This document shows, piece after piece, positions 34,878 to 47,153 of a DNA stretch of 64,000 bases. Position 1 is the stretch's first letter; the number at the start of each line of letters is the position of its first letter. Below the pieces are notes generated by a model, which was not told the origin of the DNA, made no database searches, and saw only the letters and a list, made by a program, of their open reading frames with translations. Origin of the DNA: an uncultured Holophagaceae bacterium (lineage in GTDB: Bacteria; Acidobacteriota; Holophagae; Holophagales; Holophagaceae); assembly GCA_903937385.1 (NCBI GenBank), contig CAIZZF010000005.1, forward strand, positions 62,001-126,000, in the 5' to 3' direction. The position numbers and the translations under genes are program-made.

Positions 34878-36210
34878 GGTTCTTCCGGGATTTGAGGGGT
34901 AGATAGACAGGGCAACGGCAGTCTCTGATTCACTTGGATTTGCGAAGAAACAAGTGGAGAGGAGGCTGCCGTTGCTGACTAAGGAGTCTATGGCCCGAGT
35001 GGGGGCTTGGGAAGGGTACGTCGTCAGTTCGGTGCGGCGATTCGAGGCAGGTGAGCAGGGACCGAGACCTGAGGTGTGGATCGAGCTTCGGCCAAGGGAG
35101 AATCGGCTGCATAAGTGCGGGGGGTGCGGTCGGAAGGTCCGGCAAGTCCATGACTGGCATGAGCGATGGATCAGGGACCTGCCGATATTCGATGCGGACA
35201 CCCGGTTGCTGGTGAACCGGTGTCGGGTGGCCTGCCGGACGTGCGGACCCAAGGTGGAGGCCCTGGATTGGCTGGCCCCCTACGCCAGGGTCACCAGGCG
35301 CCTGGCGGAGAGCGTGGGTCGGCTGTGCAAGGTGCTCTCAATCAAGCATGTGGCGGAGCACTTCAACTTGCGTTGGGACGCGGTGAAGGCCATCGACAAG
35401 GCCACCATGGAGGCAGAGCTGGGCGCGCCCGATTTCAGCGGCGTCACGATCCTGCTGATCGATGAGTTCGCCCTCCGCAAAGGCCATCGCTACGCCACGG
35501 TGGTTATGGATGGCCTCCGTAAGCGTGTGCTGTGGGTCGGCAAGGGGCGTGGCCGAGAGGATATCCGCCCCTTCTTTGAACTGCTCGGGAGGGAAGGCTG
35601 CCAGCGCATTCAGGCGGTCGGAATGGATATGTCGGCTGCCTTCGAGGGCGAAGTCCGGGCCCGGTGCCCCCAGGCGGAGGTCGTGTTCGATCTGTTCCAT
35701 GTCGTGGCCAGATACGGGCGGGAGGTGATCGACCGGGTCCGGGTGGATGAGGCGAATCGACTCAGGCATGACAAGGCCACCCGGAAGGTCGTGAAGGGCG
35801 CCAAGTGGCTCCTGCTTCGGAATTGGGAGAATCTCCCTGACGAGAAAGCCAAGGTCCGGCTGAACGAGCTACTCGAAGCGAATCAGGCCCTCATGACCGT
35901 CTACCTGCTGAAGGATGACCTCAAGCAGCTATGGGACTACAAGCGGACAGGCTGGGCGCGAAGGGCATGGGAAGGCTGGTTGGATCGGGCCAGGGAAAGC
36001 GGCATACCCCCACTCATCAGCTTCGCGAAGAACCTCGGCAAGAGGATCGACGGCATCCTGGCTCACTGTGACTTTCCGATCCACACCAGCCTGATCGAAG
36101 GCGTGAACAACAAGATCAAGCTCATCAAGCGCATTGGCTACGGCTACCGGGACGATGCCTACTTCTTCCTCAAAGTCCGCTCAGCCTTCCCCGGAATTCC
36201 CGGATGAACC
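34878..36210 (+). mobile_element. ISL3-family insertion sequence
   Basis: A 1,333-base element bounded by terminal inverted repeats: left GGTTCTTCCGGGATTTGAGG (from 34878) and right, read inwards, GGTTCATCCGGGAATTCCGG (from 36210). It encodes one transposase. The 8 bases outside each end (TTTTTATT and ATTTAATA) do not match, so no target duplication remains. Together with the truncated pglX on one side only, this suggests a deletion that started at the element rather than a simple insertion. Confidence 0.85.
34972..36207 (+). CDS. ISL3-family transposase
   Basis: About 411 residues. A TTG start with AGGAGG six bases upstream is preferred; an upstream GTG (34954) or a later ATG (34990) are alternatives. 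An N-terminal zinc-binding region (CGGCGRK, CRVACRTCG) and HTH-like segment precede the DDE domain. The latter has ILLIDEFALRKGH (first Asp), VGMDMSAAF (second Asp) and the C-terminal SLIEGVNNKIKLIKRIGYGYR with the catalytic Glu. The stop codon lies inside the right inverted repeat. It appears intact. Confidence 0.9.
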   Translation: MLTKESMARVGAWEGYVVSSVRRFEAGEQGPRPEVWIELRPRENRLHKCGGCGRKVRQVHDWHERWIRDLPIFDADTRLLVNRCRVACRTCGPKVEALDWLAPYARVTRRLAESVGRLCKVLSIKHVAEHFNLRWDAVKAIDKATMEAELGAPDFSGVTILLIDEFALRKGHRYATVVMDGLRKRVLWVGKGRGREDIRPFFELLGREGCQRIQAVGMDMSAAFEGEVRARCPQAEVVFDLFHVVARYGREVIDRVRVDEANRLRHDKATRKVVKGAKWLLLRNWENLPDEKAKVRLNELLEANQALMTVYLLKDDLKQLWDYKRTGWARRAWEGWLDRARESGIPPLISFAKNLGKRIDGILAHCDFPIHTSLIEGVNNKIKLIKRIGYGYRDDAYFFLKVRSAFPGIPG

Positions 36211-38550
36211 ATTTAATAGGCCCAAGACCCCTAAACGGAATTCGTTGGGGAAAAAACACGGACTTACATCGCCATTTATAACCCCAGCATCGTGTAACCT
36301 TAATGAAGGCACAGACGCTGTGATCCTTGACCACACAAATCCAGGTTCAAAATACAAATGCTCGCTTGGAACAATCGGATTATGACCACTTTTAATCCTT
36401 CGACCGTTCCCTTCCCAATCTACTACCAGGATATTGTTGCCATACCATCGACGAAATGCGCCACCGCTATCAAACTTGAACCAACGCTTGCTTGATGAGA
36501 CTGCTTGGTTTCTGCTTTGGGCATCCAGTTCGAAGTTGTCCGAGCCTACTTCCCACCATTTTTTTACGAGCCGCTCTACATCCCCCGGTTGTAAACCTCG
36601 CTTTGCATCTCCCAAATTCTCAATGGTTGGTCCTGATAACAATTTGAGGGACTGTTTGCTGAGCCAGTAAGCAACCAGATAACCAGGCAGCTTTTTAAAA
36701 TCAGATGATGAGCGCAGATAGGACGGGAAAGCATCCAAATTATGGAAGTTTGCTTCTATGTCCGTGTTTGACTGAATCTCACCAGCTTTGTTGAACAATC
36801 GTCTAAAAACCCCTTTTCGCTCAGTGTTGGGGGTTTTGGCGAGGACGAATCCACAACTTCCGAAATCCCCACCCCATACTCCCCGCCCATTGTGCGACAT
36901 GGAAACGATGCACCCAACGTTGAGCACAATCCTACGGAGGTCTGAGAAGGATTGAAGAAACAGCCAATTGGGGATTGTGATCATTCCGCAAAGGCCATCA
37001 GCCGTCAGGAACGCAAAGTTTCGGAGAATGAATGCACCATATAGATCAGATTTTCCTTCAGCGAGAGTGGAGCCCAAGAAATTCCTGATAGAGGGGATCA
37101 TCGCCCCGCTACCCATATAGGGTGGGTTAGCCACAACAACGTGATACCGCTGAGTCAGCGCCTCGGCCTGCTCAAGCACGCGCAGGACCTTGAGGTGGGT
37201 ATCTCGCAAGAATATCTGGCTGCCAATATTTTGCGAATTGATGGCCCTCCGAACCTCGGCGATGGCCTTCTCGTCCATGCAAGGTTGGATGAGCGAGCCA
37301 AAGGTCTTGGCCTCCTCGAACTGATGGAGCAACCGGATTGGGGCCTCACTGAAGAGATCCCCCAGACCAAGGGCGCGAATGTACTCCCGCAGTTCCCCCT
37401 CATCAAAGAGCACATTCTGAAGCTCCATGACGGCGGGCTGGACAATGCGCTCAGGCTGGAGGAACCGGCGGGACTTCTCCCGCGCCTTAAGGACGAGAGC
37501 CAACCCTGCGAGTTGGGCGGCACGGGGACAGATCTCCAGGCCGTGAAGGTTGTAACGCAGTATGAGAGTGGGAATGTCGTTCGGTGCGTAACCCGCTTCC
37601 TCGTAGATGAGCACGAGGAGGTCGAAGGCATAGAGAAGCATGTGTCCGGAGCCGCAAGCTGGATCTAGGAGGCGGATCTCCTCGGGCTTGTTGATGCGCA
37701 GGAAGTCCGTTTCTACTTCGCCCTCGATGTAGTACGGCATGTACTCGCGGAGTCGAGAACTAGGGCGGTTCAGCAGCCAGAGACGGCCCAGAGAATTCTC
37801 TACCAGGTAACGGACGATCCAGTGGGGCGTGAAAAGCTGAGTGACAGCAGGAATGTCCTCCGTAGGCACCACGCTCTTGCGCGCCATCACGGCGTCCTTC
37901 TTCTCGGCAATGTAGAATTGATAGAGCCAGCCCAGTACTTCGACGTTTTCGCAGTCCTCTGAGGCGAGGTTGTCCACCACCTTCCGCAGAACGGAATCCG
38001 AGTGTAGGAGGTTATCCGGTAGCAGGAGTTCGGTTTCGTCCTCAATGGCCTCGAAGAGGAAGGGCATTACCCTGTGAAGGGCATTACATTGAGCCACTAG
38101 TAAACGGCGGTATAGTTCCTGCTCCTTACCTTCCAGCTTCAGGTCCACAACATCTGAGGCCTTGATACCGGGCAGATCCAAATGCTCGGCCTGCTCCAGT
38201 ATTTCTGGCACCGGTTTGCCCTCAGGGTGGCTGAGCACCCGGTACCCGTGATCGAGGTAGCCCTGCAACTCCATGTAGCGGAGCGCGGCGAAGCGATTGA
38301 ACCAGGTGTAGGCCATGGCCTCCATGACCTGTTCGAAGCCCTCCCTTTCGATTCGGCCCACTAGCCGCTGCCGACGCCCCTCAACAGCCTTTGGGTAGGC
38401 TTGGCCCTGAATGATCGTCACATCGCCCTGTGTTATGGCTGGGGCTATGCCCTTCTCCGTAATCCCGAAAAGTGCGGCACGAGCCTTCATCGCCTGGATG
38501 AAGTCTCGTCGAGCAGCAGGAGCATAAGCCTTCAGCTTAGTGCGGTCCAT
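36181..38550 (-). pseudogene. pglX: BREX methyltransferase PglX, 3' part missing at the IS end
   Basis: PglX is the adenine-N6 methyltransferase that marks host DNA in BREX. The remaining frame gives about 789 residues, against roughly 1,200 for the full family. The start chosen (MDRTKLKAY) is 10 bases after brxC. The SAM motif DPACGSGHML near residue 295 and the catalytic NPPY near 475 are intact. Native sequence ends at 36211, where the right inverted repeat of the ISL3 element begins. The final ten codons (GSSGNSGEG end) are read from the IS. The missing C-terminal third is not found beyond the IS, so activity is probably lost or altered. Confidence 0.88.
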
Positions 38551-38560
38551 TTTTGTTCCC

Positions 38561-41500
38561 TTATCTAATCTGTACACGTTCATTGCTAGCCAGTGCGGCC
38601 TCTAACTGCACACGCAGGGCCGCAAGGAAGTCGTCAACATCTTCCTGAGTTTCCAAACCACTCTTGGGGGCCAGGTCGGCTGGCTTCAACACGCGTGGCT
38701 TCTTGATGGTGGGTTTGGGTGGCTCTGAGGCTGGCGTTATTCCCCCTCCGGGGGTTGGCTGGGGAGGCCGTGGCGCACAGGCAGCTTCCAAGCGTAGAAG
38801 CGCCTCACCATATAGTTGGTCTGCCTCCTCCACAGATTGCTTGAGGTGGGGAATGCTCTCCTGGCTATCGACCCGGCCTAGAAGTGCGTTCAGTGGAGAG
38901 ACACATCCGTCAATGATGTTGACTGATGCATGACTCCCCTCAGCATCCCTTCGCAGACTTGTTAATAGACCCTCGATTTTATCTCTGGTCTCCCGACGAT
39001 GGTGCGCCAAGAGGAGGTTCTGGAGGGCCTCCAACTTAGCAATCAGATCCGGGCCTTCCTGAATGCACCCGTAGGGATGAGACATCCCAAGGATCTCCTT
39101 CATTCGTCTCAATGCAACCTTGCCGGTTTCATCTTCTTCAAGCTGGAGCCGATTCAACTCAAACTTTGCATAGGCCTTACACATCCGGTCCCAGGTCGGT
39201 CGCTGGGGACCAAAGAAGTTGCTTAAGGTGTGGAAGTCCTCCGTCCCATCTAGCAACTCGCTCTTGGCTGCATTGAAGCCTTCGATAAATGCAGCGCTGT
39301 CCTTCTCCGCCAGCAAGGGCTTCACCACTTTCAGAAGATGCAGAACCTCTTCTCTTCCTGGATAGGTGGTCCCCTCAGTGAGTCCCTGGAATTGCTTAAG
39401 ATCCTCCAGCCAGCCATCTAGCTTGGTCCGCAGGAATGCCACAATGAGATCTTCGCCATCAGGCCCCATCTGGGCGAAGACATCCTTACCAAGCTGGCGG
39501 GCCGTTTGGATGGCTTTGGGATCCAACGCCTTACGCTGGACGACCGTGATCCTCCGCCGCTTCTGTGGGTTGGTGATGGCTTCGTAAACCCGATCCAGGG
39601 GAATATTCGCACTATCCATGACGAGTTGGATCTCTCCCAGCACCACCAGGCGGGCAACGATGAGCAGTGTCTCTTCCTCGGGCCATCCATAGGGGCGGCG
39701 AGAGAATTTGGCCTCCACCAGATCATGCAGGACGACTTGAGCACTTCTCATACCCATCAGGTTCAGATAGTCACGGACCTCCTTGATCGCCTTCGGGTTG
39801 CTCTCTTCTTCTTCTAGGTCCAACCGGGCCTTGGCCACATCATTGGCCCGAAGCACGGCTTGAATTTCTCGCGGCATAAGGTGGCTGGTATCTCCATCCC
39901 CACGCCTATGGAGGTAGTCCATCTTCGTGAAGGTGTTGTCTACCAGGTAGCCCAGGGATTCAAGCAGGTAGTCATAGGCTCCACCCTTCTTGGGGGAGAG
40001 TGGCTGGCCTGCGCCGAAGTAACTGGCCTCCATAAGAAGGTTGGCCACGCTTGAAATGAGTCGCTCTCGACGATTGTGGTTCTCGGTGGCGAGATCACTG
40101 AGAATTCGGCGGGTGGCTTCGGGTTGAGTCCCATCGTTCTTCTGGGTGGTGTATTTGCCCACCTGGAGCATCATTCGGAGTTCCCGTTGGAGGATCGCAT
40201 TTGTATCCCCCAACTTGATCACTACGGCCCCACCATCGCGGCTGGCACTCTCAGATAAGCAGCGCCCTTTGTCCCAGGATTCGTAGTCATCGGCCAGAGG
40301 CGTGACGACCAGAACCGGCAAAGCCCCGTCTTCCTTCCGTCCGATGGCATGTTGGTCGCATTCCCGATTGAAGGAGAAGGGCCGTCGGGTCTGGAGGTGC
40401 GTGAATTTCTTGTTGTCCTTGTAGACCTCTTCGAAGATCAGCTTGCCAAGGGCATTGGCCTGCTCGGAGGCGATGACCTCAACATCCTTGATCTCTCGGT
40501 TGATGTCGCGCTCTTCATTAGTGAGAAAGAAGTACAGGTCACCATTCCGGCTGATCAGGGTTTCCTTTTCCAGCCGGACGAGACTTTCCTCGATGCGCCG
40601 CTTGAGAGGAATTCGGTCCTGGTCTATTTCCTCGGCGCAGAGCGATGCCAGGTTGTCCACATTAGCCCTCATTTCCTCCACATAACGGATGAGGAAGAGG
40701 ACCTGAAGCAGCAGAACGTCGAAGGGCTGAAGTGAGTCGTTGCCTTTAGCCTGATCGATAGTGCGTTTCACAGCGGTATCGAGGAAGCTCTCGATGGAGG
40801 GATAGAAACGATAGAGGGGGACCAATACGCCGAGTTCCTGGTCCGCCACCTGTTTGGCGGCAGACTGGAAGGCATCCAGGATGGAGCGCTCGCCCCGAGA
40901 GAGGTGGGCCCCAGTCGCCCCGTGCTTACGAATGGCCTCGAAGATCTTCTGAAGCAACTGAAATTGATAGGGCGCAAAGGGGTAGTGCGCCGCGAAATCG
41001 TCCGCTTCCTTGTACTGCCGGAAGGTCATACCCGAATTCAGGAAGGACATCTGGTTCTTGAGGATGTCGCCCTTGGCCTTATAGAGGGTGCGCAAGGCTT
41101 CCTTCACGCCTTCTTTCTTCTCTAGAAGACGCTTGAGAATAACCTCGTCCACGTTGGTGCTGGAGAGAGAGAGGCGTGTCTTGAACCGGCCCTGAATCTT
41201 GGAGAAGTCCTGGGCTCTTTCCTTTTTCAACTGGCCAAGGACGGCGTCTATGTCCTCCTGGGATGTCACCACCACCCAGGCTCGGCCTTCGCAGATGGTG
41301 CCCAAGTTCTCGGTGATGGTCTGGAGGCTAAGCATCAGGTGAGAGTCGTCACCGATGAACTGACCGACTTCATCGACCAGGAACATGATTCGGTGCTGGG
41401 GACCTTTCTCGTCAAGGTATTCCTTGACCCATTTACTAAAATTCTCTGGCGTGATGGAAACCGCTTCTGACCCGCTATCAAAGAACTTCTCGGCAGATTC

Positions 41501-42178
41501 CATACTGATTTCAAGCGCGTGACTTAGGGCCTTAATGACATGGTCCCGAAGCAAATCCTTGGCGTCGCGCTCGACTTCCCACTCTGAGCCATAGTCCTCG
41601 TGAAAGGCGTCCACAAAGGCTTGGTACTTCCCCTTCTTCGTGAGGTGACGCTCCATGAAGGCGATCTCAGGATGGTCGGCGCAGAAGCCCTGCATCTCAT
41701 TGAAGACCTTCAGAAACACGCGCAGGATGGCGTCACGTCCGTGGTTGGCGTCAGCCTTACTGTCGATGTTGAAGAGGATCGCATCGGTATTGGCAGTCGC
41801 CACGCGCTGAATGTCGCCCAGTATCATGGCGTCATTCACCTTTGACTTGAAGAACTCTACGGCCTTGCGTTGCTGGCCGTCGTAGCTGTGCAGGTCATTC
41901 TTCAGAAGGTAGGAGAGCACCTTGATGAAATGGGATTTACCCGAGCCGAAGAAGCCCGAGATCCAGACGCCGGTCTTTGATGAGGCATCTGCATCCGCTG
42001 CGCGCCCCAGCGTGGAGGCAAAAACCTCTAGGAATTTGCCCATGTGACCATTCAACTCACGGGTGACCACGAACTCGTCGAGTTCCTGCCAGACAGAGGC
42101 ATCGTCCAACTGGTCAGCTTTGACCACCCCGTTGATGGAGCGGGCGATACGGCGTTCGAAGAGATCTTGGATCTGCAT
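38561..42178 (-). CDS. brxC: BREX ATPase BrxC (PglY family)
   Basis: 1,205 residues, the usual BrxC size. Walker A GFFGSGKSH lies near residue 75, and an arginine/sensor region IMFLVDEVGQFIGDD near 260 is the Walker B. The start MQIQDLFERRIAR and the order brxA-brxB-brxC-pglX are diagnostic of type 1 BREX. A proline-rich linker (PQPTPGGGITPASEPPKP) precedes the C-terminal 60 residues. The reading frame is intact. BrxC is an essential BREX ATPase whose exact step is not fully defined. Confidence 0.95.
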   Translation of the reverse strand: MQIQDLFERRIARSINGVVKADQLDDASVWQELDEFVVTRELNGHMGKFLEVFASTLGRAADADASSKTGVWISGFFGSGKSHFIKVLSYLLKNDLHSYDGQQRKAVEFFKSKVNDAMILGDIQRVATANTDAILFNIDSKADANHGRDAILRVFLKVFNEMQGFCADHPEIAFMERHLTKKGKYQAFVDAFHEDYGSEWEVERDAKDLLRDHVIKALSHALEISMESAEKFFDSGSEAVSITPENFSKWVKEYLDEKGPQHRIMFLVDEVGQFIGDDSHLMLSLQTITENLGTICEGRAWVVVTSQEDIDAVLGQLKKERAQDFSKIQGRFKTRLSLSSTNVDEVILKRLLEKKEGVKEALRTLYKAKGDILKNQMSFLNSGMTFRQYKEADDFAAHYPFAPYQFQLLQKIFEAIRKHGATGAHLSRGERSILDAFQSAAKQVADQELGVLVPLYRFYPSIESFLDTAVKRTIDQAKGNDSLQPFDVLLLQVLFLIRYVEEMRANVDNLASLCAEEIDQDRIPLKRRIEESLVRLEKETLISRNGDLYFFLTNEERDINREIKDVEVIASEQANALGKLIFEEVYKDNKKFTHLQTRRPFSFNRECDQHAIGRKEDGALPVLVVTPLADDYESWDKGRCLSESASRDGGAVVIKLGDTNAILQRELRMMLQVGKYTTQKNDGTQPEATRRILSDLATENHNRRERLISSVANLLMEASYFGAGQPLSPKKGGAYDYLLESLGYLVDNTFTKMDYLHRRGDGDTSHLMPREIQAVLRANDVAKARLDLEEEESNPKAIKEVRDYLNLMGMRSAQVVLHDLVEAKFSRRPYGWPEEETLLIVARLVVLGEIQLVMDSANIPLDRVYEAITNPQKRRRITVVQRKALDPKAIQTARQLGKDVFAQMGPDGEDLIVAFLRTKLDGWLEDLKQFQGLTEGTTYPGREEVLHLLKVVKPLLAEKDSAAFIEGFNAAKSELLDGTEDFHTLSNFFGPQRPTWDRMCKAYAKFELNRLQLEEDETGKVALRRMKEILGMSHPYGCIQEGPDLIAKLEALQNLLLAHHRRETRDKIEGLLTSLRRDAEGSHASVNIIDGCVSPLNALLGRVDSQESIPHLKQSVEEADQLYGEALLRLEAACAPRPPQPTPGGGITPASEPPKPTIKKPRVLKPADLAPKSGLETQEDVDDFLAALRVQLEAALASNERVQIR

Positions 42179-42190
42179 GGGGAATCCGAA

Positions 42191-42766
42191 TCAAGGAACG
42201 AGTTTGAAGGCGCGGTAGTAGTTGTCTTGCTTGATCTGACCGAAGAGCGAAAGGGACTGCCCGTCGTAGATGCCGGGATAGAAGAGAACCAGCGGGGTTT
42301 CACCCATGATGGGATGAAGGTTGTTCAGCAGGTTGTGGGTTCGAAGCAATGGATAGGCGCTGCCCACACCTGACATGAGCATCAGATCCAAATCCTGAGG
42401 TGGGTGCTGGCTGGCTAGGAACTTCGCAATGTTCTTGCCTTGCAAGGGAGCGGCAAGGGCCTTCAGCAGAGCCTCGTTGCCCTTGGCCGTCTGTAACTCG
42501 ATGGCCTTGCCCAAGTAGTTGCGATCCTTCAGGTAGTCGATCAGCAAATCGAACAGGTTGACATGGGCCACCCGCAGGGCCGGGCGTTGCTTTGAGATCT
42601 GGGACATGAGGAAGTCAAGGTGCTTCCGAACGGACAACTCGTCCTCAGGCAGGTAGTCGAAGATCCAGAAGCTGATCTCGTTTCCCAGGCCCTTACCGGT
42701 CAGGAAGTCGTCGCTGATGATCTTGGGCAGAATCTGGTTCAGGCGCTCATCGAGGTCACGGGTCAT
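42191..42766 (-). CDS. brxB: BREX protein BrxB (DUF1788)
   Basis: 191 residues, intact. The N-terminus (RLNQILPKIISDDFLTGKGLGNEISFW) and the C-terminal VLFYPGIYDGQSLSLFG match DUF1788. BrxB is a conserved small component of BREX, thought to help assemble the BrxC/PglZ/PglX complex. It overlaps brxA by four bases and is 12 bases from brxC, so the operon is tightly coupled. Confidence 0.92.
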   Translation of the reverse strand: MTRDLDERLNQILPKIISDDFLTGKGLGNEISFWIFDYLPEDELSVRKHLDFLMSQISKQRPALRVAHVNLFDLLIDYLKDRNYLGKAIELQTAKGNEALLKALAAPLQGKNIAKFLASQHPPQDLDLMLMSGVGSAYPLLRTHNLLNNLHPIMGETPLVLFYPGIYDGQSLSLFGQIKQDNYYRAFKLVP

Positions 42767-43353
42767 GGGCTCACCTGGAGGCAGCGGAGGACATACCGTT
42801 CGTTCCTGGATTCCAGGTAACGAAGAACTGGCGTGGCTATGAACACTGGCTGGAGTTTGAGGCTACGGGTGCTATCCAGGAAGCCTGCTTGAGCTAAGCA
42901 AAGGTAAACAGAGGAACGCAGGCGTCGGCGGGTGGAGTCGTTCCAGTGGGGCATTTCCGAATCCCGCCCCCGACAATCGGCCAGGTAGTCCTCCCACAAG
43001 CTGATGGGCAAGGTAGTGGCGAACTTCCGAAACTGTTCCCGGACCACCAGATCCAGGAAGTCGCCAAGCAGGGGGCTGTGCTTCACGGCAGCCGCCAGCA
43101 GGGCGTGTTGAACGACTGGGCTGGCAGAGTCCCGGACCATCTCCAAAAGGGGTGGGTCGAACGGGGCCAGGCGGTCACGAATCAGCCGGGCCAAACGCTG
43201 GGCGGTGGCCATGCTCTTGGCATGGAGCACATTGTCCTTCCCAATGGCTGCCTGCCAGGCATCCCCCTCCACACCACGCAGCAGCAGATCCGCAACAACA
43301 CGGCTCTCGGCGGGCTTCAAGGCCCCCGCTGTGATGTTGGCGGCGTAGATCAA
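42763..43353 (-). CDS. brxA: BREX protein BrxA (DUF1819)
   Basis: 196 residues, intact. YAANITAGALKPAESRVVADLLL and the C-terminal VLRYLESRNERYVLRCLQ match DUF1819. BrxA is a small helical DNA-binding protein and the usual first gene of type 1 BREX. The 140 bases upstream hold a strong dyad (43492-43516). Confidence 0.92.
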   Translation of the reverse strand: MIYAANITAGALKPAESRVVADLLLRGVEGDAWQAAIGKDNVLHAKSMATAQRLARLIRDRLAPFDPPLLEMVRDSASPVVQHALLAAAVKHSPLLGDFLDLVVREQFRKFATTLPISLWEDYLADCRGRDSEMPHWNDSTRRRLRSSVYLCLAQAGFLDSTRSLKLQPVFIATPVLRYLESRNERYVLRCLQVSP

Positions 43354-45193: not shown

Positions 45194-45766
45194 ATGGGCC
45201 CTCGGTCGAGCAGCCAGCACGGCGAATTCCACGGTTCGGCCCTGCACCAGGCCGTCGCGTCCTTTGGCCACGCCACGAGGGGTGTGGAAGCGCACCGAAA
45301 TCGCGTCTCTCAGGACATCAAGGCCTTGGAGACCTACTTGCAGGGCCTGCCCTGCCAGACGCCCTTCCGGCTGTGCCTTGGGCAGGACTTCGACACCGCC
45401 TTGGTCCCACCCATTGCGGCCAAGCTACTGCCCGCTACTGAGCCTGAGGCTGCTCTGGGGGTCGCTCTGGTTCTGGCCCTTGGGCCGAATCCCAAGGGCA
45501 AGACCAGGCTGCTCCTGGAAGTCTCCATCGGCTTCCCTGCCAGCGACCTGGGCCTTCCGGACCGAGGGGCCAACGCGCCAGTTGAGCTTCGGTACCGCGA
45601 GTGCAAACCCTTGATTGAACACACCTGGGCGATCCGCGCCCAGGTCTACCCAAGGTTGCCGGAATTCCTACACGCCCTGGCTGAGCATAGGCAAACCACA
45701 GCCAAGGTGATCGCCACCAGGCCCGGAGCGAGCCCGCCTGCCCAGCAGCCGACTGGCAATCTATGA
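45194..45766 (+). CDS. Hypothetical protein, third gene of the operon
   Basis: 190 residues starting one base after the previous stop. An N-terminal helical part (SFGHATRGVEAHRNRVSQDIKAL) precedes a beta-rich half (LPCQTPFRLCLGQDFDTAL, ARVEVSIGFP-like segments) and a Pro/Ala-rich tail. No catalytic motif is apparent. The unit might be a toxin/immunity or a DNA-processing accessory, but nothing in the sequence decides this. Confidence 0.55.
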   Translation: MGPRSSSQHGEFHGSALHQAVASFGHATRGVEAHRNRVSQDIKALETYLQGLPCQTPFRLCLGQDFDTALVPPIAAKLLPATEPEAALGVALVLALGPNPKGKTRLLLEVSIGFPASDLGLPDRGANAPVELRYRECKPLIEHTWAIRAQVYPRLPEFLHALAEHRQTTAKVIATRPGASPPAQQPTGNL

Positions 45767-46133
45767 CGGGCTCCCTATTCGTAACAAACAATTATATTGC
45801 AATAGTTAAATAACAACCAGAGAGAAATGGAATTACCGCTCGGCAGGACCAGGAAGGGGTCGAGTTTGGGTTTCTGAAAAAAAATCCGCGATCTTTGCCT
45901 TCGAATTGACTATTCCCTATTGCTGGCCCAAAAAAGCGACCAGCCAGGCAACCCAGGGTTGGCCGCCCAAGCGTGGGTTGCGCCAGACCACTTCCCTCGC
46001 CGCACCACCTTTGCCAAGGCCGGAGACCAACATGCCAAAGCCACCAGCCGCCCGGGCCCCTCCTTTAAAACACTCTCGTTCCTCGCCTGGGGCAGATCCA
46101 CCTAATCGGGCGCTCTGACCCAAGCCTCTCGGT
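45767..46133. other. Intergenic DNA left of the CRISPR-like array
   Basis: The segment 45,776-45,900 is AT-rich (TAACAAACAATTATATTGC onwards) and could be a leader or promoter. From about 45,900 to the first repeat the DNA is GC-rich, with no convincing gene. If the array was once functional, this is where a leader would lie relative to the repeat orientation. Confidence 0.4.
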
Positions 46134-46399
46134 CCCTTCCCCGTAGCTGCGGGGATCAACCGGCCGAACGCACTACGAGGATGGCGTCAACCTAACCTTT
46201 CCCCGCTGACGCGGGGATGAACCCAATGGGTTTCAACTTTTGGCTGACGTTCTTTCTATTCCCCGCCTCGCGGGGATGAACCAAGCACTAACGATGGCAC
46301 CACCATCGTGTTCGCCTTCCCCGTTCTACGGGGATGAACCCAGCACCAACGATGGCACCACCATCGTGCTCTCCTTCCCCGCTCTGCGGGGCTGCACCA
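46134..46399 (+). CRISPR. Degenerate orphan CRISPR-like array, type I-E repeat form
   Basis: Five units of TTCCCCG...CGGGGATGAACC start at 46137, 46199, 46259, 46317 and 46375, at steps of 62, 60, 58 and 58 bases, i.e. 28-29-base repeats with 30-33-base spacers. All five keep a 6-bp stem, but loop and sixth pair differ: GTAGCTGC, GCTGACGC, GCCTCGC, GTTCTAC, GCTCTGC. The last repeat has a decayed 3' end (GGGGCTGCACC). Spacers 3 and 4 are almost the same sequence. There are no cas genes in the window. An active array would have identical repeats, so this is a relic or another kind of hairpin repeat. Confidence 0.6.
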
Positions 46400-46694
46400 A
46401 ACCGCACCACTGCTCGCCGACCAACTGGGCCCTTGGCCCAGGACGAAGGGGTTGTCAGGGCGCAGGCTGAGGTTCGAGACCTCGCTCTGGCCCCCTTCTG
46501 CTGGTCGTCCACTCCCCGGCCGGGGCTCGTAACTTTTTGCAATTTTCCCTGCGACCTTTTGCGCTCCCCTGACTAATTCAGTTGGGGGCCCACCAAGGTG
46601 GCTACTGCGGCAGGGACCGAACCACCCGCCCTCTTTGGGGCCGGGTTGGCCCTGCCTACCTCAATCCTACCCGTTCCTTTCTCAGGAGATATCC
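46400..46694. other. Intergenic region right of the array
   Basis: No gene. The last 20 bases hold CTCAGGAGATATCC, a good Shine-Dalgarno for the gene starting at 46695. The rest is GC-rich without obvious repeats. Confidence 0.4.
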
Positions 46695-47153
46695 ATGAAC
46701 ACCATCAACCCTGCCCGTGACCCGGAGGTTATTCAGGCCGTGCTGAAGTCGTACCTGCCGCTGCTTCACCAGGAATATGGCCCGCAAGATGTGGCCAATT
46801 ACGCTGCCGAGGCCTCCGCCCGCTACCTCACCTTGATGCGCACCCATCGGCCCAGGCTCACCAAGGCTGAGTGGCTCCTGCTGGTGGAAGCGTTCTTGGG
46901 GACCATGACGCTGTTCGAGTCGAACCAGGTGGCCATCACTAATGGGTTGCTGCTGCTGGAAGTCGAGGACGCCTGCACCCTGGAGGGCTTGGCCTCCAAG
47001 TGGCACGTCGACCAGGCGGAGTTGCTGCGGAAAGTCGCAGCCTTCAGTCCCCTCGAAACGATGGCGGCGTTGCATGTCATCGAATATGCCAAGTTCCACG
47101 TCGAGGAAATGCCCATTGAACAGGCCTTGGCCGAGCGCGGCGCAGCCGTCTAA
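46695..47153 (+). CDS. Hypothetical helical protein
   Basis: 152 residues from an ATG with AGGAGA. Almost entirely helical: YLPLLHQEYGPQDVANYAAEAS, WLLLVEAFLGTMTLFESNQ, and a C-terminal HVIEYAKFHVEEMPIEQAL. No cysteines or catalytic motifs. It is followed after 48 bases by another small gene on the same strand. Family not recognised. Confidence 0.6.
   Translation: MNTINPARDPEVIQAVLKSYLPLLHQEYGPQDVANYAAEASARYLTLMRTHRPRLTKAEWLLLVEAFLGTMTLFESNQVAITNGLLLLEVEDACTLEGLASKWHVDQAELLRKVAAFSPLETMAALHVIEYAKFHVEEMPIEQALAERGAAV

What the first reader, a model, noticed from the sequence alone, without database searches (positions are those of the whole stretch)
46134..46399. Type I-E-like CRISPR repeats that diverged but kept their stems
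All five copies differ in loop and sixth base pair: T-G, C-G, C-G, T-A, C-G. The fourth copy shows a paired change (C-G to T-A) that keeps the stem. This covariation suggests selection on RNA or DNA structure rather than simple decay. No cas genes are seen in the window. The array may be an orphan processed by a distant Cas6, or a different hairpin system.
Basis: partly seen in the sequence, partly recalled or inferred. Interest (0 to 1): 0.7.

Follow-up and report, generated by a model that had tools for sequence, protein, structure and literature searches.

The report
Orphan CRISPR array with diverged loops
A bacterial genomic island carries five CRISPR-type RNA hairpins whose stems have been preserved while their loops have scrambled, which is what we found when such an array is never renewed by the spacer-adding enzymes Cas1-Cas2 but is still read by the RNA-cutting enzyme Cas6e, here apparently in a different host.

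Summary
Five type I-E repeat cores lie at 46137-46398 in a low-GC3 mobile/defence island. Loops are at saturation (0.77 differences per site), while base pairs 1-5 show 0 differences in 100 comparisons; simulated neutral decay cannot give this. One correction: copies 4 and 5 share the loop TCT.

The genome has no Cas6e and no Cas1, and no cas remnants were found in the window and sampled flanks. None of 76 other genomes of the family carries the array.

Among Cas1-bearing type I-E loci checked (Acetobacteraceae, plasmids), those with a detected array have nearly uniform repeats and a 61-nt period. The one Cas1-less locus with an array (Sabulicella, effector genes intact) has 22 different inner sequences in 23 copies, stems kept, spacing drifting, as in the window. 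About 20 cas-less viral mini-arrays also have diverged loops.

Best reading: an orphan array not copied by Cas1-Cas2 but selected as RNA for recognition by I-E Cas6e/Cascade in trans, most likely a repeat-mimic decoy (multi-hairpin Racr), less likely a guide mini-array or a relic of a Cas1-less locus. Decoy versus guide is not resolved. New variant of a known kind.

The parts
46137..46161 (+). repeat core R1, TTCCCCGTAGCTGCGGGGATCAACC; stem CCCCGT/GCGGGG (pair 6 U.G), loop AGCT
   Evidence: sequence
46162..46198 (+). interval 1 (37 nt between cores); no credible protospacer
46199..46223 (+). repeat core R2, TTCCCCGCTGACGCGGGGATGAACC; loop TGAC
46224..46258 (+). interval 2 (35 nt); no credible protospacer
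46259..46282 (+). repeat core R3, TTCCCCGCCTCGCGGGGATGAACC; 3-nt loop CTC
46283..46316 (+). interval 3 (34 nt); 30/34 identical to interval 4; contains perfect hairpin ACGATGG-CACCA-CCATCGT
46317..46340 (+). repeat core R4, TTCCCCGTTCTACGGGGATGAACC; pair 6 T-A (compensated), loop TCT
46341..46374 (+). interval 4 (34 nt); diverged duplicate of interval 3 with the same internal hairpin
46375..46398 (+). repeat core R5, TTCCCCGCTCTGCGGGGCTGCACC; loop TCT, handle changed at two bases
45767..46136 (+). upstream intergenic stretch (possible leader or promoter); no sigma-70-like site found
46695..47153 (+). 152-aa ORF next downstream, no family; no relative in public genomes or plasmids, one weak match in 297 phylum genomes; not shown to be linked in function
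36181..43353 (-). BREX genes of the same island: short pglX, brxC, brxB, brxA (context only)

Best explanation
A cas-less array of five type I-E repeat mimics on a mobile/defence island. Its + strand RNA would be recognised and cut by type I-E Cas6e (stem) and bound through the AUGAACC handle, supplied in trans by whatever host the island enters. Because no Cas1-Cas2 copies the repeats, only the bases the machinery reads (stem, handle) are kept; loops, outer repeat edges and interval lengths drift. Most likely use: a multi-hairpin decoy that soaks up Cas6e/Cascade subunits (a tandem version of an RNA anti-CRISPR). Next most likely: guides for the host's Cascade against rival elements. Shown: the hairpins, the loop/stem contrast, covariation across comparable arrays, absence of Cas6e and Cas1, the island setting, and the agreement of the pattern with Cas1 absence. 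Inferred: transcription, Cas6e binding in trans, and the decoy role.
For: Loops saturated and pairs 1-5 invariant. Covariation on 30 hairpins: 98.6% paired, 6 compensatory cells, each 0/500 shuffles. U.G/G.U 8 against A.C 1 on the + strand, so RNA of this strand. Natural test: I-E loci with Cas1 have nearly uniform repeats and 61-nt period, while the only Cas1-less locus with an array (L218/L123) has 22 distinct inner sequences in 23 copies and spacing 58-62, with stems 95.8% paired and 4 compensatory cells, 2/500. No Cas6e, no Cas1, no cas remnants. GC3 falls from about 0.9 to about 0.65 at 36.2 kb, with BREX, RadC, YqaJ recombinase and IS elements. Viral contigs carry cas-less I-E mini-arrays with diverged loops; the nearest, L066, has five hairpins with different loops, a 50-nt period too short for a 32-nt guide, and two homologous intervals. 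Racr precedent for I-E exists (PMC10651486). For a decoy in the window: intervals correspond to 33, 31, 30, 30-nt spacers, two of them near-identical and self-complementary, none with a target.
Against: No Cas6e in this genome or in 46 congeners, so nothing here can use the array now. No promoter or terminator found by simple scans. No virus, relaxase or anti-CRISPR gene identified beside it. The array has no homologue, so selection is inferred among its copies and by analogy. The Cas1 correlation rests on a single Cas1-less array. Racrs described so far are solitary. Spacing drift alone does not separate decoy from guide, because the Sabulicella array, next to its own Cascade genes, drifts too.
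Confidence: 0.5

Rival explanations
1. Guide mini-array: a mobile-element array whose intervals are real spacers that steer a host's type I-E Cascade against competing elements.
For: Published virus-borne mini-arrays do this (PMC6858448, PMC7099407, PMC11656645). Several viral arrays found here have exact 61-nt spacing and intervals matching their own flanking genes with mismatches (L072, L085, L073, L059), as expected for targeting related viruses. Window intervals (30-33 nt if the repeat is 29 nt) are near the I-E length.
Against: No protospacer in phages, plasmids or IMG/VR above chance; no match to the island itself; intervals 3 and 4 are near-identical and self-complementary; length is off the 61-nt ruler.
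Confidence: 0.22
2. Relic: the island once carried a type I-E locus that lost cas1-cas2 first (repeats then diverged under Cas6e selection, as in Sabulicella) and later all cas genes; the array now does nothing.
For: The Sabulicella locus shows exactly that intermediate: effector genes, no Cas1 in the genome, 22 of 23 inner sequences different, spacing 58-62. R1 and R5 have handle changes such as decay would start with.
Against: No cas remnant in the window or the sampled flanks; all 30 base pairs intact in five copies; no relative with an intact locus was found.
Confidence: 0.22
3. Neutral decay of an ordinary CRISPR array (a decayed leader-distal end).
For: Terminal repeats of true arrays do degenerate (e.g. 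L128).
Against: Loop distance 0.77 against 0/100 in stems; neutral simulation gives 0 of 20000 at about half that divergence; all copies diverged, not only terminal ones.
Confidence: 0.02
4. A different hairpin RNA (sRNA, type III toxin-antitoxin RNA, riboregulator) unrelated to CRISPR.
For: The 281-nt region folds better than shuffles on both strands (z -5.9 and -7.1); intervals 3 and 4 also form hairpins.
Against: No Rfam family near its threshold; the fixed bases are exactly the I-E stem and handle found in true I-E arrays of the same family; no toxin gene recognised downstream.
Confidence: 0.04

Closest known systems
RNA anti-CRISPRs (Racr, solitary repeat units), including RacrIE1 and RacrIE2 (PMC10651486)
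   Same: Cas-less, MGE-borne RNA mimicking CRISPR repeats; I-E examples proven to inhibit.
   Different: Known Racrs are solitary. SRUFinder discards full matches within 100 bp of each other and candidates similar to their flanks, so tandem loop-diverged sets like this were outside that survey.
Virus-borne CRISPR mini-arrays (PMC6858448, PMC7099407, PMC11656645)
   Same: Cas-less repeat arrays on mobile elements with CRISPR-like spacing.
   Different: Described with one or two spacers and repeats identical to the host's; here five copies differ among themselves in loop and pair 6, intervals match nothing, two are duplicates.
Type I-E CRISPR arrays with cas genes (e.g. G054/L040, same family)
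   Same: TTCCCCG...CGGGGATGA-CC core, about 60-nt period.
   Different: True arrays: nearly identical repeats, 61-nt period, cas operon with Cas1.
Cas1-less type I-E locus of Sabulicella rubraurantiaca (L123/L218, found here)
   Same: Loops scrambled, stems compensated, spacing 58-62.
   Different: Has casA-B-7-5-6e beside it and about 23 copies.
RliB-CRISPR of Listeria (PMC3886909)
   Same: Five-repeat array without cas genes nearby, can work with trans-encoded Cas proteins.
   Different: Identical repeats without stable hairpins, processed by PNPase, fixed locus throughout the genus.

Membership tests
Functional type I-E CRISPR-Cas locus | I-E hairpin repeat (CCCCGC/GCGGGG, ATGAACC handle) | tested here: met
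Functional type I-E CRISPR-Cas locus | cas6e and cas1 in the genome | tested here: not met
   assembly 97.8% complete
Functional type I-E CRISPR-Cas locus | near-identical repeats with fixed 61-nt period | tested here: not met
   controls
RNA anti-CRISPR (Racr) | repeat mimic without cas genes on a mobile element | tested here: met
   island evidence; the element type is not identified
RNA anti-CRISPR (Racr) | solitary (no second repeat within 100 bp), as used in the published survey | tested here: not met
   five copies; rule
RNA anti-CRISPR (Racr) | expressed small RNA that binds Cas6/Cas7 and inhibits immunity | not testable with these tools
   needs RNA-seq, binding and interference assays
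Virus-borne CRISPR mini-array | spacers matching related viruses or elements | tested here: inconclusive
   no match above chance
Virus-borne CRISPR mini-array | repeats identical to the host's CRISPR repeats | tested here: not met
   no I-E system in this host; copies differ from one another

The most novel reading that the evidence does not exclude
Tandem, loop-diversified repeat mimics form a separate class of RNA anti-CRISPR (multi-hairpin decoys) carried by phages and genomic islands. Loop divergence keeps the copies from recombining away while every stem still captures Cas6e.
Probability: 0.28. Interest if true: 0.75.

Novelty: new variant of a known kind. Interest (0 to 1): 0.55.

Why it matters
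Loop scrambling with stem retention appears to be a fingerprint of arrays still read by Cas6e but no longer copied by Cas1-Cas2. That gives a way to find working adaptation-free arrays and tandem repeat mimics that array finders (which need identical repeats) and SRUFinder (which needs solitary repeats) both pass over. It also isolates the part of the repeat Cas6e needs from the part kept only by copying.

Tried and rejected
Rfam: nothing near threshold. tRNA attachment-site idea for the downstream hairpin (TGAGGTTCGAGACCTCG): no tRNA found. Protospacer searches of the whole array in phages and plasmids, and of interval cores and a codon-degenerate STNDGTTIV pattern in IMG/VR: matches do not extend beyond the searched core. 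Similarity of intervals 3/4 to genus genomes is to unrelated coding sequence. Plasmid hits to the array are ordinary I-E arrays and became controls. Neighbouring protein as a handle to sister islands: no relative in genome contigs or plasmids, one weak hit in 297 phylum genomes. First MAFFT alignments A1/A2 misplaced the 3-nt loops; redone with N padding (A3/A4). One search failed on a script error and was rerun. The walk added a spurious sixth window copy and did not extend L066; those two rows were not used.

Full report
WHAT IS THERE. Five copies of a type I-E repeat core lie on the + strand at 46137-46161, 46199-46223, 46259-46282, 46317-46340 and 46375-46398, spaced 62, 60, 58 and 58 nt, in an intergenic stretch between ORFs ending at 45766 and starting at 46695. 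The core is TTCCCCG(N)(loop)(N)CGGGGATGAACC, the arrangement seen in true I-E arrays of the same taxonomic family, e.g. CCCTTCCCCGCGAACGCGGGGATGATCCG in G054. Copies 4 and 5 share the loop TCT, so there are four distinct loops.

NOT CHANCE, NOT DECAY. The pattern gives five hits in this 3.7-Mb genome, all here, and only two lone hits in 76 other genomes of the family. Among the 25 aligned columns the four loop columns are the single most variable set of four out of 12650 sets. Pairwise differences are 24/31 in the loops, 10/20 in pair 6, 0/100 in pairs 1-5 and 12/70 in the handle. In a neutral star-tree simulation with an expected loop divergence of only 0.41, all 30 pairs stayed intact in 0 of 20000 runs. 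Copies 4 and 5 together with their preceding near-identical intervals (30/34) suggest a unit duplication in which pair 6 changed from T-A to C-G or the reverse with the loop kept. With about 12% divergence that compensation would arise by chance perhaps 3% of the time (my estimate), so it is suggestive only, and the unit boundary is ambiguous.

SETTING. From about 36.2 kb onward GC at third codon positions falls from about 0.9 to about 0.65. This stretch holds BREX brxA, brxB, brxC and a short pglX, RadC, a sigma factor, a YqaJ/RecE-type recombinase, helicases, an IS21 pair, and an ISL3 transposase at its left edge. It is an acquired island; its element type was not identified. The array itself was not found in any relative. 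There is no Cas6e or Cas1 in the genome, no Cas6e in 46 congeners, and no cas remnant in the window and sampled flanks.

COMPARABLE ARRAYS. Scans of IMG/VR for the core with 5 or 6 inner bases gave 57 stretches. After removing duplicate contigs, 38 multi-copy arrays could be scored (including the window): 23 have loops that differ among copies and 15 are uniform. Only one viral locus, L100, has detectable I-E cas genes in the fetched flank. The closest to the window is L066: five hairpins with different loops, a 50-nt period, and intervals 1 and 2 homologous to each other. A 25-nt gap between cores cannot hold a 32-nt spacer, so L066 is hard to read as guides. Other viral arrays keep exact 61-nt spacing, and some of their intervals match nearby genes of the same contig with mismatches, as expected for published guide mini-arrays against related viruses.

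COVARIATION. Thirty hairpins (the window, viral, and a few cas-less genomic ones) give 98.6% paired cells against 95.3% in shuffles, 6 compensatory cells against 0.8, and covariation score 0.175 against 0.100, each reached by 0 of 500 shuffles; slid controls collapse. The number of pairs with a change on both sides (2) is not significant on its own (68/500). These sequences are partly related and were found by searching for the core, so pairs 1-4 are uninformative by design; pairs 5 and 6 (columns 7-14 and 8-13) carry the signal, pair 5 being fixed in each seed copy and free in the others. U.G or G.U pairs in these two pairs on the + strand number 8, A.C one, which points to RNA of this strand.

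A NATURAL TEST OF WHY LOOPS DIVERGE. A scan of species-representative genomes found L123 (Sabulicella rubraurantiaca), with casA-B-7-5-6e genes, no Cas1 in the 5-Mb genome, and about 23 repeats almost all different in the loop, some with fully compensated stems. Its stems are 95.8% paired (10/500), with 4 compensatory cells (2/500) and covariation score reached by 2/500. I then sampled 200 genomes of its family; 35 have Cas6e, and regions around them were read. Every locus with Cas1 and a detected array has nearly uniform inner sequences (0-7% off the commonest in most, up to 37% at worst) and a 61-nt period, as do four plasmid loci with Cas1. The only Cas1-less locus with an array, Sabulicella, has 22 distinct inner sequences in 23 copies and spacing 58-62. 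The window array (4 distinct loops in 5 copies, spacing 58-62) has the Cas1-less pattern. This rests on one Cas1-less array and needs a wider survey.

MECHANISM. Copying by Cas1-Cas2 keeps repeats identical. Without it, only what Cas6e and Cascade read is maintained: the stem and the AUGAACC handle. I favour a decoy because the intervals are off the I-E length (30-33 nt), two are near-identical and self-complementary, none has a target, the outer repeat edges are not kept, and Racrs of type I-E are proven inhibitors (PMC10651486). A guide mini-array or a relic of a Cas1-less locus remain open. Transcription, Cas6e binding and inhibition are inferred, not shown.

NOVELTY. Racrs are described as solitary units; the published finder discards repeats within 100 bp of one another or similar to their flanks. 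Mini-arrays are described with repeats identical to the host's. A cas-less array of five mutually diverged but structurally kept I-E repeats fits neither description. The literature searched was an open-access library only, so earlier mention elsewhere cannot be excluded.

Noticed in passing
L123:297-7789 (NZ_JAFEUU010000008.1, Sabulicella rubraurantiaca); also L218: Type I-E effector operon without Cas1 anywhere in the genome; the cas6e gene is followed by a 396-aa RTX-type repeat gene instead of cas1-cas2, then an array with nearly every loop different and several compensated stems.
   Followed up: yes
L066:2449-2672 (IMGVR_UViG_2900074995_000003): Five I-E hairpins with different loops at a 50-nt period on a viral contig; intervals 1 and 2 are homologous and too short for a guide.
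   Followed up: partly
L072, L085, L073, L059, L061, L089 (viral contigs): Intervals of I-E mini-arrays match flanking genes of their own contig with mismatches, consistent with spacers against related viruses.
   Followed up: partly
L048:3177-3260 (reverse strand): Second hairpin of a viral two-copy array is followed by TTTTTT, so the last repeat seems to double as a transcription terminator.
   Followed up: no
window 34954-38583: PglX of the BREX cluster matches only about the first 805 of 1174 profile positions and ends beside an ISL3 transposase, so the BREX system looks truncated by an insertion.
   Followed up: no
window 46425-46540: Further hairpins downstream of the array (CTGGGCC-CTT-GGCCCAG and a long GAAGGGG...CCCCTTC helix, then CCCCGGCCGGGG with a nearby TTTTT), fold z-score only -1.8.
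   Followed up: partly
L104 and L053 (IMGVR_UViG_3300046376_000041): One viral contig holds several separate I-E mini-arrays with different loops.
   Followed up: no
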